From a bacterium (GTDB taxonomy: Bacteria > SM23-31 > JAUVVT01), in assembly GCA_030616165.1 (NCBI GenBank), contig JAUWXV010000237.1, positions 1-5,612 on the forward strand: a stretch of DNA of 5,612 nucleotides, read 5' to 3'. Of this stretch, positions 1,410 through 5,612 are shown piece by piece. The notes below the pieces were generated by a model, which saw only the letters and a program-made list of their open reading frames with translations, made no database searches and was not told the origin of the DNA. Position numbers and translations under genes: made by a program. Position 1 is the stretch's first letter. Each line of letters opens with the position of its first letter.

Positions 1410-1550
1410 AGAGTGCTGAAAAAGTCAAATGGACAATTAATTCGGGGCGAGATTGCCACGTCTACGGCTCGTAATATTAATACTTATATGACATAAAGAG
1501 TAGTGCAGTGACGCCTGCGCAGGCGTGGTAATCTACTTTTTCAGCAGTCT
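1410..1550. mobile_element. MITE-like element with terminal inverted repeats
   Basis: The ends are inverted repeats: 1410-1425 (agagtgctgaaaaagt) matches the reverse complement of 1535-1550 (agactgctgaaaaagt) at 15 of 16 positions. A second, inner inverted pair follows: 1450-1467 against 1517-1534, matching at 14 of 18. The two pairs are offset by 24 nt on the left side only (1426-1449). No reading frame of note lies inside, so this is a non-autonomous element or a degraded insertion-sequence remnant. I see no convincing target-site duplication. It fills most of the 1355-1605 gap, and its stem may also attenuate read-through from the barrel gene, although no T-run directly follows a compact hairpin. 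Confidence 0.65.
1511..1526. repeat. Perfect 16-bp palindrome inside the MITE-like element
   Basis: The sequence acgcctgcgcaggcgt equals its own reverse complement. As RNA or single-stranded DNA it would form a 6-bp GC-rich stem with a GCGC loop. It lies at the inner edge of the right arm and has no equally perfect counterpart in the left arm. Confidence 0.85.
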
Positions 1551-1592
1551 ATTACAATAAGAATTTTTATCTCAAAAACATTACCAAATAAA

Positions 1593-1605: not shown

Positions 1606-1692
1606 ATGAACAGAAGAGAATTTTTAAAGAAAGGTTTGGAAGGGATTGTTGTAGGAAGTATTCCTTTAATTTATAATTGTGGGAAGAATCCA
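1606..1692 (+). repeat. Leader module copy 1 (reference)
   Basis: These 29 codons, from ATG to the Pro codon of CGKNP, form the unit shared by all array genes. Used here as the reference for counting differences by eye. Confidence 0.9.
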
Positions 1693-2076
1693 ATAAAATC
1701 AGAACCAATTAGTGGTTATCAATTTTGGGATTTTTACGATGCGTATGATTTTAGCAGTCAGAAATTATATAAGGGACAATGTGATAAAGGGGATGTTTGT
1801 TTAAGTAAAAATCAGATACCTGAATTTGATACATTCATACATAAATCTAAGGCTATTGCTATTTATTATGCAGGAGCCGATACTTTAGTAGATCCTAAGA
1901 ATGTTCCTTTTGATACAACAGTATTAGATATAATCCTTTCACGATGGCGGGAGTTTGGAGATTTTAAACATAATACTACTATATGTGTTAAAACAGAAGA
2001 AGATTATTATGCTAAAATGATATTTCCAGCAACCCCGTTTTCATTTAACTGGTATATTCCATTAAAAGAAAAGTAA
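1606..2076 (+). CDS. Tat-type lipoprotein, array copy 1, unknown mature domain
   Basis: The product is 156 residues. Residues 2-8 (NRREFLK) match the twin-arginine consensus RRxFLK. A short, weakly hydrophobic stretch (14-22) leads to a lipobox-like LIYNC with Cys25, followed by GKNP (26-29). The expected fate is folded export by Tat and lipid anchoring on Cys25, although Asn at -1 is not canonical. The remaining ~125 residues are rich in Tyr, Phe and Asp and contain three further Cys (59, 65, 127), the first two as C-x5-C. I recognise no family and propose no function. It is the first and the only array gene with a clear ribosome-binding site, and it lies 23 nt before copy 2. The leader is nearly identical in DNA to the other copies; the body is unlike them. 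Confidence 0.85.
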   Translation: MNRREFLKKGLEGIVVGSIPLIYNCGKNPIKSEPISGYQFWDFYDAYDFSSQKLYKGQCDKGDVCLSKNQIPEFDTFIHKSKAIAIYYAGADTLVDPKNVPFDTTVLDIILSRWREFGDFKHNTTICVKTEEDYYAKMIFPATPFSFNWYIPLKEK

Positions 2077-2099
2077 ATAAATTTATCAAATTCAAAAAA

Positions 2100-2186
2100 A
2101 TGAACAGAAGAGAATTTTTGAAGAAAGGTTTGGAAGGGATTGCTATAGGTAGTATTCCTTTAATTTATAATTGTGGGAAGAATCCT
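2100..2186 (+). repeat. Leader module copy 2
   Basis: 82 of 87 bases match copy 1 (five differences: codons 7, 15, 16, 17 and 29). Similarity ends within two or three codons after CGKNP. Confidence 0.9.
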
Positions 2187-2681
2187 GTTAAATTTACGCA
2201 ACAAACGGATTATTTTCCGCTTAAAGTTGGAAATAGATGGATATATAGTCCCCAATTGGAACAATCGATTACAGATATTAAAATAACCGAGTATGGAGTC
2301 TATTTTGTTTTTTCCATGTATAATTATGAAAACAGGATATTTAAGAAGGATTCTAACTCTCAGATAATAGAATACAAAAATGGACAAAAAAGAGTATGGT
2401 ATAAATTTTCTGCAATTGAAGGTGAATCCTGGATAATACAAGAATCTAATGGTTCAGACCTAATGAATAATTGTGTTGTTACGTTGATAAGCAAAAATGA
2501 GAGAGTATCTGTACCAGCAGGGACATTTGAAAATTGTGTCAAGTTAAATTTTAGCTGTCCAGTTATGGACGCCGGCTTAATTAGTGAATGGTTTGCACCC
2601 GGGATTGGCTGTATCAAACGGATAACTCAATCATTTGCCGGTCCCAGAACATTTGAATTAAACGATTATAAAATTCAATAA
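2100..2681 (+). CDS. Tat-type lipoprotein, array copy 2, PLKVGNxWxY / VPAGTF domain
   Basis: The product is 193 residues. The leader is as in copy 1: NRREFLK, then LIYNC with Cys25 and GKNP. The mature part opens with YFPLKVGNRWIY (38-49) and later has VSVPAGTFENC (136-146) and WFAPGIGCIKR (164-174). This order of motifs is, from memory, typical of a beta-rich domain common in secreted and lipid-anchored bacterial proteins of unknown function (of the DUF3108-like kind); the exact family name is uncertain. Cys at 123, 146, 153 and 171 in the mature part may pair after export. It starts 23 nt after copy 1 ends, without a recognisable Shine-Dalgarno site (caaattcaaaaaaatg), and is followed after only 2 nt by copy 3, so co-transcription is likely. 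No catalytic residues are evident. Confidence 0.85.
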   Translation: MNRREFLKKGLEGIAIGSIPLIYNCGKNPVKFTQQTDYFPLKVGNRWIYSPQLEQSITDIKITEYGVYFVFSMYNYENRIFKKDSNSQIIEYKNGQKRVWYKFSAIEGESWIIQESNGSDLMNNCVVTLISKNERVSVPAGTFENCVKLNFSCPVMDAGLISEWFAPGIGCIKRITQSFAGPRTFELNDYKIQ

Positions 2682-2683
2682 GA

Positions 2684-2767
2684 ATGAAAAGAAGGGAATT
2701 TTTGAAGAAAGGTTTGGAAGGGGTTGTTATAGGAATTCCATTAATTTCTGGCTGTTTGAAGAATCCT
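2684..2767 (+). repeat. Leader module copy 3 (one codon shorter)
   Basis: 71 of 84 aligned bases match copy 1, plus an in-frame loss of 3 nt at the Ser18 codon. It encodes MKRREFLKKGLEGVVIG-IPLISGCLKNP (28 residues). Confidence 0.85.
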
Positions 2768-2821
2768 TTGGGATTTAATATGGAAGAACGTTCTGTCCAA
2801 AATTTGTATTTATTTTTTTAA
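2684..2821 (+). CDS. 45-residue leader-only lipoprotein minigene, array copy 3
   Basis: ATG at 2684, two bases after the stop of copy 2, opens a frame of 45 residues ending at TAA 2819-2821. It has the Tat motif KRREFLK (2-8), a short hydrophobic stretch and LISGC with Cys24, the only fully canonical lipobox in the array. KNP follows at 26-28, then about 17 residues (LGFNMEERSVQNLYLFF) with no domain. It is either a remnant of a gene whose body was deleted, or a genuine small Tat lipopeptide. The intact leader and frame with no internal stop argue that the 5' part is not old debris, and the A/T-rich end (tatttattttttta) looks like a breakpoint reached by chance. The GC-richer barrel gene begins 83 nt later. 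Confidence 0.6.
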   Translation: MKRREFLKKGLEGVVIGIPLISGCLKNPLGFNMEERSVQNLYLFF

Positions 2822-2825
2822 TTTA

Positions 2826-2852
2826 TTGATAATTAATTAGTTGCGATATTAT
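2826..2852 (+). promoter_or_regulatory. Possible promoter of the PorV/FadL-like gene
   Basis: TTGATA (2826-2831) and TATTAT (2847-2852) each match the sigma-70 boxes at five of six positions, but the spacer is only 15 nt and the whole 2815-2890 stretch is very A/T-rich, so chance matches are expected. It would lie about 50 nt upstream of the ATG at 2905. Confidence 0.3.
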
Positions 2853-2893
2853 TTATTTATTTTTATGGCATAAAATGACTAATAAAATTTTAT

Positions 2894-2899
2894 GGGGAT
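2894..2899 (+). promoter_or_regulatory. Shine-Dalgarno-like site of the PorV/FadL-like gene
   Basis: GGGGAT precedes the ATG at 2905 with 5 nt between. The start is also supported by the signal peptide that follows. An ATG at 2892 just upstream is in another frame. Confidence 0.5.
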
Positions 2900-2904
2900 G
2901 AACG

Positions 2905-4362
2905 ATGAAAATTCAGGTTTATATTTTCAAAATAATCCTTCTCATATCGTTCTTTATAATTTTTCTGCCGATGATTACACTGGCACAACTCATTTCGATA
3001 AAGACAGTACCTATTGCGACAGGGAATCAGTTTCTGGTTTTTCCCTCACAGAATCTTGGCATGGGAGGCGTTTCGATTGCCGTGGAAGATCCCCTGCTCG
3101 ACCCGTTTGTCAACCCGGCAAAAGGTGCGCGGATAAAGGGAACAGTTATGTTCGCTTCACCGGTTTACTATAATATTTCAGGCGACATTATGTCCGCCCG
3201 CACTTTGCCCATAGGTGCACTCTTATTTTCAGATAATCTGTTCGGCGGCTTTTCCTTATCTATACAGCAACTCGGGACTGCAAATGCAAATAATTTCCAA
3301 CTTTTAAGTGAGAAATATTCAAATAACATGTACGCATCGGGCATACTCGGAAAGAGACTGCCGGGTTCTAACATTTCTATCGCAGGAGGGGTATTCTGGG
3401 CCGGTTTGGATGCCGTTGACGGTGTAGAGCTTTTATATGATGGAAGCCAGAAGATTGAGCAGTTCGGACAAATGGTTGATTGCCGAATCGGGATCCTTGG
3501 AGAGTTGGGCAGAGAACATTTTTACGAAGGTCTTCTATTACTTAATCGGTTCAACATGGAGCATGATGTCACTTATGTCAATCAGATATTATGGGATACT
3601 GAATGGGATAAGCGGACACGGATAGAAAGAAACCTCGACCATTCTAACACGCTGGGTCTCCATTTCGGGTACGTACGGCCTTTGGCAGATAGTGGTTGGC
3701 TTTTGGGTGGTATCCTGACCGGTAACTGGAAATCGCATCCCAAAATCCCGAATTACGAACTCATGAACATTCCGCGGGACCCTGGTAACTCCAGTGCCTA
3801 CAATTTCGGCTTAGGGTTTTCACACACTAAGGAACAGGTTACCCTGGGAATAGACCTTATTTACGAGCCGATATGGAGTAATACCTGGGCGGATGCGGCA
3901 GAGCCGGTGACAACCAGCAGCGGCAGCGTTATCCCTGTTGGAGGGAAGACCATTGAGAACGATTTCCGGTTTTCAAATAAATTACTGCGGATTGGTATTC
4001 ATAGAGATGAAAGACGTTTAGGTTTTCAATTAGGATTACAGGTGCGATCGATCATGTATTGGCTTGACCAGTACAACAACGTCATAGGATCCAGTCGGAA
4101 GCAAAAGGAACACTGGACAGAATGGACACCCAGTTGGTCCTTGAATCTGAATTTCAAGGAATTCCAGATTCGCTACACAGGTCGAGCCACTATGGGTACA
4201 GGCAGACCGGGTGTATCTTCACCTTCACCAGGTTTTCGATGGGAGTCGGATTTCTTCACCAAATCAGCAGATTTTCTCATAGCGCCGAGTGGACCACTGA
4301 CTTTGCAGGATGCCCGTGTGATGACACACCAGATTTCTATTGTTGTTCCTATCAGGAATTGA
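2905..4362 (+). CDS. PorV/FadL-like outer-membrane beta-barrel protein
   Basis: The product is 485 residues. A Sec signal peptide (MKIQVYIFK, hydrophobic core about 10-24, TLA-Q, cleavage after about residue 27) is followed at 50-72 by NLGMGGVSIAVEDPLLDPFVNPA. This is the characteristic N-terminal plug/hatch signature of PorV/FadL-type outer-membrane proteins in the FCB group (G-M-G-G-x-x-x-A, then N-P-A). The rest alternates hydrophobic and polar strands with Gly/Asn/Asp turns, consistent with a barrel. In known relatives such proteins transport hydrophobic compounds or act as type IX secretion shuttles; neither role can be chosen here. It interrupts the leader array between copies 3 and 4. 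Its rows are 45, 53 and 58% GC where I counted, against 22-38% in neighbouring array genes, so it has a different history or selection. No hairpin terminator was found after it. Confidence 0.8.
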   Translation: MKIQVYIFKIILLISFFIIFLPMITLAQLISIKTVPIATGNQFLVFPSQNLGMGGVSIAVEDPLLDPFVNPAKGARIKGTVMFASPVYYNISGDIMSARTLPIGALLFSDNLFGGFSLSIQQLGTANANNFQLLSEKYSNNMYASGILGKRLPGSNISIAGGVFWAGLDAVDGVELLYDGSQKIEQFGQMVDCRIGILGELGREHFYEGLLLLNRFNMEHDVTYVNQILWDTEWDKRTRIERNLDHSNTLGLHFGYVRPLADSGWLLGGILTGNWKSHPKIPNYELMNIPRDPGNSSAYNFGLGFSHTKEQVTLGIDLIYEPIWSNTWADAAEPVTTSSGSVIPVGGKTIENDFRFSNKLLRIGIHRDERRLGFQLGLQVRSIMYWLDQYNNVIGSSRKQKEHWTEWTPSWSLNLNFKEFQIRYTGRATMGTGRPGVSSPSPGFRWESDFFTKSADFLIAPSGPLTLQDARVMTHQISIVVPIRN

Positions 4363-4430
4363 AAAGGTAATTGGATTACAGAAGCGAGGATAAGAATCTT
4401 TGTGTTAATAATATTATTTTATGAAATAAA

Positions 4431-4517
4431 ATGAACAGAAGAGAATTTTTAAAGAAGGGTTTGGAAAGGATTATTTTAAGTAGTATTCCATTTATTTTTA
4501 ATTGTGGTAAGAATCCT
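4431..4517 (+). repeat. Leader module copy 4
   Basis: 76 of 87 bases match copy 1. One change turns Gly13 into Arg (ggg to agg). Confidence 0.9.
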
Positions 4518-4991
4518 ATAGCTTCATTGACTTCTAATGACGGATATGGTGCATTGTCCATTAAAACAGAAAAATATATATACGTATGGCAACAAAGCGA
4601 ATTTAGTAAAAAGGTTTTATATATTCACAGCACACTTGAAAATCGTTCTACAAATATTTACTATTCAAAGGTGGGTGACTTCTTTAATAGTGCATCTGAA
4701 CAGGACCTGTTATTTATAGCGGAAAATTCAGCAGGATATCTTGAAAAATATAACGAATTGGATAATTTATGGTATGAAGTAAAAAATATATTACCCCCTT
4801 TGATTGAAGGTTCACGATTTGTTTCTATCAAACAATTTAAATTATACTCAATACATGCCAGTTTATATATTAAGAAAGATGAGGAGGAAAAAGGTATATA
4901 TCGATTTCGAATTGACTATTATGATGATGAAAATCTGGAAGCTAGTACTCTGCCATACAAAGATTACTCGAATACTTTTGAAATAGAATGA
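4431..4991 (+). CDS. Tat-type lipoprotein, array copy 4, Ig-like beta domain
   Basis: The product is 186 residues. NRREFLK (2-8) is intact, but residue 13 is Arg instead of Gly (GLERIILSS), putting a charge at the start of the short hydrophobic stretch. FIFNC with Cys25 and GKNP follow. The body reads as alternating beta strands: VLYIHSTLENRSTNIYY (62-78), LDNLWYEV, then LIEGSRF, KGIYRFRIDYY (154-164) and a final YSNTFEIE (179-186). A G-x-YR-x-x-x-x-Y strand with a terminal SNxFEI is, from memory, typical of immunoglobulin-like sandwich domains in secreted FCB proteins; no named family can be given. There are no Cys beyond the lipobox. The gene starts 68 nt after the barrel gene without a Shine-Dalgarno site. 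Its TGA stop overlaps the ATG of copy 5 (ATGA at 4988-4991), so the two are probably translationally coupled. Confidence 0.8.
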   Translation: MNRREFLKKGLERIILSSIPFIFNCGKNPIASLTSNDGYGALSIKTEKYIYVWQQSEFSKKVLYIHSTLENRSTNIYYSKVGDFFNSASEQDLLFIAENSAGYLEKYNELDNLWYEVKNILPPLIEGSRFVSIKQFKLYSIHASLYIKKDEEEKGIYRFRIDYYDDENLEASTLPYKDYSNTFEIE

Positions 4992-5074
4992 ATAGAAGAG
5001 AATTTTTAAAGAAGGGTTTGGAGGGAGTTGTTATAGGTAGTATTCTATTAATTTACAATTGCAGTAAGAATCCT
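4988..5074 (+). repeat. Leader module copy 5
   Basis: 73 of 87 bases match copy 1. CGKNP becomes CSKNP, and Pro20 becomes Leu. Confidence 0.9.
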
Positions 5075-5548
5075 GTTAATTATAATGATAATACCATTAG
5101 GACAGTCGAAGATTTAGCTAAATATAGCTATGATATCGTTGAAGGAGAAGTTATAAAAGTAGAACAGAAATGGGACGACGAACATAGAATGATTTATACT
5201 TATGCTACTGTGCAAGTTGATTTATCATATAAAAATAACATAGAACAAAAAGAAATAATTATTAAACATATGGGCGGGCATTTGGAAGGATTTACAACCT
5301 GGGCGCCCGGTCAACCTGAGTATAAATTAGATGAAGATGTAATCATATTTTTAAAAAAAGATGGTGATTATTATAATACAGTTGGTTGGGATAGAGGTAA
5401 ATTTAATATTAGAACTATAAAAGGGAAAAAAATACTATGTAGGTATGTAATACCAGGCCCTGATTATATGACAACGGAGGAACCCCGGAGAGATAGTTAT
5501 AACTATATCGAATTCATAAAAGTATTACTGGCTTTACTAGCGAAATAA
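4988..5548 (+). CDS. Tat-type lipoprotein, array copy 5, DIVEGEV / EDVIIFL domain
   Basis: The product is 186 residues. The leader has NRREFLK (2-8), LIYNC with Cys25 and SKNP. The body holds DLAKYSYDIVEGEVIKVEQ (42-60), then WDDEHRMIYTYATVQVD (62-78), a GGH at 96-98, YKLDEDVIIFLKK (112-124) and VGWDRGKFNI (132-141). This motif series resembles a beta-rich domain I recall from secreted proteins of several phyla, with 'D-I-V-x-G-x-V', 'I-Y-T-x-x-x-x-x-V', 'GG' and 'GE-x-x-x-x-FL' blocks; its function is not established. The only mature-part Cys is at position 151. The start overlaps the stop of copy 4, and no Shine-Dalgarno site is visible. Copy 6 follows 40 nt after its stop. Confidence 0.85.
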   Translation: MNRREFLKKGLEGVVIGSILLIYNCSKNPVNYNDNTIRTVEDLAKYSYDIVEGEVIKVEQKWDDEHRMIYTYATVQVDLSYKNNIEQKEIIIKHMGGHLEGFTTWAPGQPEYKLDEDVIIFLKKDGDYYNTVGWDRGKFNIRTIKGKKILCRYVIPGPDYMTTEEPRRDSYNYIEFIKVLLALLAK

Positions 5549-5560
5549 AACTTCAAGAAA

Positions 5561-5584
5561 GATGACACTTTTGAAATAAAATAA
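5561..5584 (+). pseudogene. Possible 3' tail of a lost array gene ending in TFEIK
   Basis: Between copies 5 and 6 the sequence reads as DDTFEIK-stop (TAA 5582-5584). Its acttttgaaataaaat (5567-5582) matches 4974-4989, the end of the copy 4 gene encoding TFEIE, at 15 of 16 bases. It may be the leftover end of a deleted copy-4-like gene. The segment is short and A/T-rich, so chance is not excluded. Confidence 0.4.
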
Positions 5585-5588
5585 CAAA

Positions 5589-5612
5589 ATGAAAAGAAGA
5601 GAATTTTTAAAT
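5589..5612 (+). CDS. Array copy 6, 5' end only
   Basis: ATG at 5589 opens MKRREFLN, running to the window edge. 22 of its 24 bases match copy 1, so it is clearly a sixth leader module with the RRxFL core. Position 8 is Asn (aat) instead of Lys. The window ends before the hydrophobic stretch and lipobox, so neither the cargo nor the intactness of the gene can be judged. It shows that the array continues to the right. A/T-rich sequence without a Shine-Dalgarno site precedes it, as for copies 2-5. Confidence 0.75.

What the first reader, a model, noticed from the sequence alone, without database searches (positions are those of the whole stretch)
1606..5612. One Tat-lipoprotein leader, many unrelated cargo domains: a tandem leader-sharing array
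Seen: six same-strand copies of a ~87-bp module, 84-94% identical in DNA to copy 1 for the four other full-length copies, start four different proteins, one near-empty minigene and one cut gene. Similarity stops within a few codons of CGKNP, while the bodies share no evident similarity. Ordinary gene duplication would leave related bodies. Known: conserved leaders with variable bodies are typical where a common export or processing route serves diverse cargo. Inference: the leader is kept alike by recent spread, gene conversion or cargo replacement, giving a set of co-exported surface or periplasmic proteins.
Basis: partly seen in the sequence, partly recalled or inferred. Interest (0 to 1): 0.75.

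Follow-up and report, generated by a model that had tools for sequence, protein, structure and literature searches.

The report
One export leader, many unrelated lipoproteins
In an uncultivated bacterial lineage, one stretch of about 90 bases coding for an export-and-anchor signal has been copied as DNA in front of several unrelated protein domains lined up in tandem, which shows a bacterium re-using one delivery tag for many cargoes.

Summary
In detail: six same-strand copies of a leader (MNRREFLKKGLEG..IPLI..CGKNP) at 1606, 2100, 2684, 4431, 4988 and 5589 (cut), 84-94% DNA-identical to copy 1, with similarity ending at NP. The leader is not this genome's general Tat signal: its DNA occurs only on three short contigs of the own genome and in two related genomes (G001, same family; G005, another family of the class), out of 386 searched. 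The bodies behind it are unrelated: DUF3108-like, PrcB_C, BsuPI and several unassigned. Homologues of four cargoes in other phyla begin at the same domain boundary but carry unrelated N-termini, mostly Sec-like. Leader codons are 76-89% identical at conserved residues between genomes, against 42-51% in orthologous genes, so leaders are closer than the genomes carrying them. Five runs end in an empty, truncated or decayed leader; one gene is an in-frame hybrid with a second recurrent leader. Best reading: a 5' export module (Tat-type, probably lipoprotein) copied and recombined, with horizontal exchange inferred, onto diverse mature domains. It resembles "terminal reassortment" of secreted effectors, here in tandem operons; it is neither an integron nor one duplicated gene family. 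Export and function are inferred.

The parts
1560..1590 (+). 5' element TTTTTATCTCAAAAACATTACCAAATA before the first leader; likely promoter/5'UTR part of the module (function inferred)
   Evidence: At <=1 mismatch found only before leader copies: C219:1564, C197:274, C197:4756 and G001 C285:5053; 2-mismatch hits are at control level
1606..2076 (+). Leader copy 1 (1606-1692) plus body without a Pfam match, 156 aa
2100..2681 (+). Leader copy 2 (2100-2186) plus DUF3108-like body (PF21347, E 4.5e-5, below the curated cut-off), 193 aa; gap of 23 nt after gene 1
   Evidence: homologues elsewhere with other signals
2684..2821 (+). Leader copy 3, near-empty minigene of 45 aa ending the first run; gap of 2 nt after gene 2
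4431..4991 (+). Leader copy 4 (4431-4517) plus body without a Pfam match, 186 aa
4988..5548 (+). Leader copy 5 (4988-5074) plus a body with homologues in other phyla, 186 aa; overlaps gene 4 by ATGA, so the module supplies the stop of gene 4
5589..5612 (+). Leader copy 6, cut by the contig end after 8 codons

Best explanation
A compact 5' module consists of an A-rich start region (in some copies with a ~27-bp upstream element) plus ~29 codons for a twin-arginine signal peptide with a lipobox-like cysteine and a short tether ending in NP. It has been copied as DNA and joined in frame to complete mature domains of unrelated families. The products form tightly spaced same-strand operons. Each cargo is then expected to be exported by Tat and anchored as a lipoprotein by the same leader. 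New genes probably arise by recombination in or beside the leader: unequal exchange between leader copies adds or removes cargoes, and short-homology joins replace what lies behind (or before) the leader. Arrays or modules probably moved between genomes of this class. Shown: shared DNA, sharp boundaries, unrelated cargoes with other N-termini elsewhere, cross-genome leader similarity beyond that of orthologous genes, and one in-frame leader hybrid. Inferred: Tat export, lipidation, co-transcription, the recombination route and horizontal transfer.
For: Leader DNA (38-bp pattern, <=3 mismatches) is found 10 times in the own genome, 2 in G001, 1 in G005 and 0 in the other 383 genomes, with 0 reversed-pattern controls. 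In the own genome it lies on three contigs only; the next protein match elsewhere has E 0.85. Bodies belong to different families: PF21347, PF14343 and PF12690, with no mutual similarity. In other phyla the relatives of the 2100, 4988, PrcB and BsuPI bodies mostly match from the domain start onward behind unrelated N-terminal sequences, most of them Sec-like signals. At identical residues, leader codons match 76% (G000-G001) and 89% (G000-G005), against 49% in the syntenic permease and 42-51% in ClpX/ClpP; chance probabilities reach about 1e-7 to 3e-6 for the best pairs. Codons 2-13 are protein-conserved (pN 0.07 against pS 0.37) and the later part is looser (0.20 against 0.34), as for a working signal peptide. 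An upstream element specific to leader copies travels with some of them. C197:4457 is an in-frame hybrid of this leader with a second leader, joined at GAArrrATTGTTA. TatC is present.
Against: Leaders are only 87 nt and not independent; several G001_5622 pairs are not significant in the codon test. The codon test compares AT-rich leaders with less AT-rich orthologues, although a null from the AT-rich cargo genes gives the same answer (0.50 expected). Four of five full window copies have Asn before the cysteine, an unusual lipobox. Horizontal transfer is inferred from similarity; no shared cargo was found between G000 and G001. The genomes are fragmented MAGs.
Confidence: 0.72

Rival explanations
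1. Old tandem duplication: all genes descend from one lipoprotein gene, the bodies have diverged beyond recognition and only the leader is conserved by selection or gene conversion.
For: Tandem same-strand arrangement; single-sequence methods can miss remote homology; structure predictions of bodies 1 and 4 were uninformative.
Against: Cargoes hit different Pfam families and have relatives in other phyla with other N-termini. Leader synonymous sites are not saturated, so the leaders did not split as long ago as such bodies would need. Within-array leaders are not specially alike.
Confidence: 0.08
2. Nucleotide-level constraint on the 5' end (translation start, mRNA structure or a regulatory RNA) keeps the leader DNA alike, without recent spread.
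For: Excess codon identity between genomes; shared A-rich start region.
Against: Synonymous similarity runs to the 3' end of the leader, not only the initiation region (pS 0.34 against 0.37). No fold beyond shuffles in DNA folds and no Rfam match. It does not explain why unrelated cargoes have the leader at all.
Confidence: 0.1
3. An integron-like cassette system in which the repeat is a recombinase site.
For: Alternating repeat and unrelated ORF, same strand, with a leftover repeat at several run ends.
Against: The repeat is coding sequence and folds no better than shuffles. No integron integrase above cut-off in G000, G001 or G005, only sub-threshold tyrosine-recombinase matches as in the controls.
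Confidence: 0.04
4. Assembly or binning artefact: leader repeats joined unrelated contigs.
For: The window ends inside a leader copy and the MAG has 343 contigs.
Against: Bodies are in frame with their leaders; the same arrangement recurs in separate genomes G001 and G005. C197 and G001 C285 both place leaders beside the same permease gene.
Confidence: 0.04

Closest known systems
Terminal reassortment of type III secreted effectors (Stavrinides et al. 2006, cited in PMC6460904 and PMC5895054; the original paper was not held)
   Same: A conserved N-terminal secretion signal is found on otherwise unrelated bodies, producing chimeric secreted proteins.
   Different: Here the signal is a Tat-type lipoprotein leader in tandem operons of one lineage; no type III secretion or host role is indicated.
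Phase-variable mycoplasma surface lipoprotein loci such as vpma (PMC2824730; the shared-leader feature is from own knowledge)
   Same: Clustered lipoprotein genes with a conserved 5' part and variable bodies.
   Different: Vpma proteins are a related family switched by site-specific recombination; here bodies are unrelated, each gene has its own leader, and no inversion was seen.
Signal peptide gain and loss in bacterial orthologues (PMC5952966)
   Same: Same cargo family with different export state in different lineages.
   Different: That study describes gain and loss within orthologous groups and removed Tat groups; here one leader is repeatedly re-used and clustered.
Integron gene cassette arrays (own knowledge)
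   Same: Repeat alternating with unrelated ORFs on one strand.
   Different: The repeat encodes the protein N-terminus; no attC-like fold and no integron integrase.

Membership tests
Tat-exported lipoprotein signal peptide | Twin-arginine motif (R-R-x-F-L-K) near the start | tested here: met
   NRREFLKK in copies 1, 2, 4 and 5; KRREFLKK in copy 3; lost only in some decayed copies elsewhere
Tat-exported lipoprotein signal peptide | Lipobox [LVI][ASTVI][GAS]C | tested here: inconclusive
   Canonical-like in copy 3 (LISGC) and in C282/G001 copies; Asn at -1 in copies 1, 2, 4 and 5 (IYNC, IFNC)
Tat-exported lipoprotein signal peptide | Tat translocase in the genome | tested here: met
   TatC PF00902, E 3e-64
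Tat-exported lipoprotein signal peptide | Tat-dependent export and lipidation | not testable with these tools
   needs an experiment
Terminal reassortment (shared secretion signal on unrelated bodies) | N-termini homologous at DNA level, bodies not homologous | tested here: met
Terminal reassortment (shared secretion signal on unrelated bodies) | Cargo relatives exist with another N-terminus | tested here: met
   for four cargo families
Single duplicated gene family | Homologous bodies | tested here: not met
Integron cassette array | attC folded site and integron integrase | tested here: not met
Phase-variable lipoprotein locus (vpma type) | Site-specific recombinase and switchable promoter at the locus | not tested
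   No population reads available; window proteins scanned against Pfam include no recombinase

The most novel reading that the evidence does not exclude
The leader DNA doubles as the recombination site of an integrase-free cassette system. Cargoes flanked by leader copies are gained, lost and exchanged between arrays and between genomes by homologous recombination within the leader, so that any captured domain is automatically given a start codon and an export tag; leftover empty leaders at run ends are the landing sites.
Probability: 0.2. Interest if true: 0.75.

Novelty: new variant of a known kind. Interest (0 to 1): 0.55.

Why it matters
Signal peptides are usually treated as evolving with their protein. 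Here one export tag has been re-used at DNA level for unrelated periplasmic domains, apparently moving domains that elsewhere follow Sec-type signals onto a Tat-type lipoprotein route. The arrays, empty leaders and a leader hybrid offer intermediate states of how a bacterium assembles new secreted proteins, and they make signal-peptide shuffling testable. They also warn that annotation by N-terminal similarity would wrongly group these proteins.

Tried and rejected
Structure prediction of bodies 1 and 4 from single sequences: pLDDT 34 and 33, meaningless, so no fold search was made. Viral contigs, plasmids and phages: no leader match of note. Only one related locus from genome contigs, on a 5794-base contig like G001 C285. 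Integron hypothesis: rejected. Rfam: no family in the window. Two-mismatch hits of the upstream element: at control level, discarded. Literature searches for shared signal peptides on unrelated lipoproteins gave no direct precedent in the open library.

Full report
Observation. The window carries six same-strand leader copies at 1606, 2100, 2684, 4431, 4988 and 5589 (cut at the contig end). Codon-aligned identity to copy 1 is 94, 85, 87 and 84%. Averaged over all copies, similarity begins about five bases before the ATG and ends at the codons for K-N-P: pairwise identity is 88% in the last nine bases, then 45-48%, then 31%. The four long bodies show no mutual similarity. The genes are tightly spaced: gaps of 23 nt before 2100 and 2 nt before 2684, and a four-base ATGA overlap at 4988, so the module supplies the stop of gene 4.

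Own genome. The window is contig C219 of a 3.7-Mb, 343-contig MAG. The leader DNA recurs only on C197 and C282. Outside these three contigs the best protein match has E 0.85. The genome has 118 RRxFLK-coding sites against 54 for the reversed pattern, mostly with other codons and other sequence. The leader is therefore a discrete module and not the general Tat signal.

Other arrays. C282 holds a PrcB_C gene, a BsuPI gene and a decayed leader with a stop codon. C197 holds an empty leader of 31 aa (2875), two broken leaders (258, 4738) and a gene (4457) whose first 15 or so codons are this leader and whose following codons are a second leader type (IPKKSFLTKLRNKIIPYVLSLSILAGAELLFNKNEVFGQ) in front of a beta-propeller with a T9SS-type tail. 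G001 (same family) has two copies, one on a 170-aa body and one truncated at 75 aa; it matches record JAUVVT01, a MAG named CSMAG_1171, and the CSMAG prefix belongs to a cold-seep catalogue (PMC10491686). G005 (another family of the class) has an empty 48-aa copy lying before a sequence that looks like the start of 16S rRNA (recognised by eye) and directly after a gene with the second leader. C197 and G001 C285 place leader copies beside the same permease gene, so the site is shared between genera.

Empty leaders. The last copy of a run is empty, truncated or decayed in the window's first run, on C282, next to the permease on C197, in G001 and in G005. This is five of five runs whose end can be seen, but the sample is small and the definition of a run was made after looking.

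Cargo. Body 2 matches DUF3108-like (PF21347, E 4.5e-5, below the curated cut-off). C282 cargoes match PrcB_C and BsuPI above cut-off. A concatenated search of 98 genomes found relatives of bodies 2 and 5, PrcB and BsuPI in other phyla. Most full-length relatives match from the beginning of the domain and carry unrelated N-terminal sequences, mostly Sec-like signals by eye; a number of weaker matches are internal to longer proteins. No such cargo was found in the other genomes of the class, apart from a weak relative of body 5 in G004 and a weak BsuPI-like stretch in the G005 second-leader gene. Bodies 1 and 4 remain unassigned; structure predictions from one sequence failed.

Age of the leader. 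At identical residues, codons are the same in 76% (G000-G001) and 89% (G000-G005) of cases. The syntenic permease gives 49% (G000-G001), ClpX and ClpP 42-51% (G000 against G003 and G005), and a null from local AT-rich codon usage about 50%. The best pairs reach probabilities of 1e-7 to 3e-6, but several pairs with G001_5622 are not significant, and pairs are not independent. The leaders are thus younger, or more often exchanged, than the genomes. The first part is protein-conserved and the hydrophobic part looser, as for a working signal peptide. Copies inside the window (85%) are hardly closer to each other than to copies on other contigs (81%) or in G001 (83%), which argues against local gene conversion.

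Upstream element. TTTWTATMTCAAAAACATT occurs at <=1 mismatch only before four leader copies in G000 and G001, so in some cases a longer 5' module was copied. A promoter role is inferred.

Distribution. The 38-bp leader pattern is present in 3 of 386 genomes, all of this class, with no control matches. It is absent from viral contigs and phages and has no meaningful plasmid match.

Mechanism. The best-supported account is DNA-level copying of a 5' export module onto complete mature domains, with recombination in or near the leader. The hybrid at C197:4457, joined in frame at a short stretch of similarity (GAArrrATTGTTA), is a direct example of such a join. Tat export is expected from the motif and from a TatC gene. 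Lipidation is likely, but four of the five full window copies have Asn before the cysteine. Integron features were tested and not met.

Comparison. The pattern works like terminal reassortment of type III effectors (PMC6460904, PMC5895054, citing Stavrinides 2006), but with a Tat-type leader and in tandem operons. Vpma loci of mycoplasmas (PMC2824730) are also clustered variable lipoprotein genes, but those bodies are one related family switched by site-specific recombination. Signal peptide gain and loss is known in orthologues (PMC5952966). No direct precedent was found in the open library searched, which does not cover most subscription journals.

Noticed in passing
window 1411-1551: Imperfect inverted repeat (GTGCTGAAAAAGT ... 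ACTTTTTCAGCAGT) around a more G+C-rich insert, resembling a small MITE-like element just before the array.
   Followed up: no
L012 4588-4468 and L013 about 3890-3840 (minus strand): Palindromic repeat with GTAGGGACAGAACA...TGTTCTGTCCCTAC beside leader copies on both contigs.
   Followed up: no
L012 4427-4281, 4695-4591, 2754-2632; L031 3824-3964; L072; L070: A second recurrent leader (MPLENIVNNE..IPKKS.L.KLKNKI.PYVLSLSILAGA) on propeller, BsuPI-like plus propeller and TPR-GWxTD proteins in three families of the class; also a shared leader with several cargoes.
   Followed up: partly
window 2905-4362 and 191-1354: Two large envelope-type proteins between and before the leader runs (the first looks PorV/PorQ-like by eye), without Pfam match above cut-off; the first has 45.5% G+C against about 30-33% for the array bodies.
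   Followed up: partly
L031 5217-5363: Empty leader copy upstream of a sequence that reads as the start of a 16S rRNA gene in G005.
   Followed up: no
window 5589-5612: The contig ends inside a leader copy, suggesting that the array continues and that the repeat broke the assembly.
   Followed up: no
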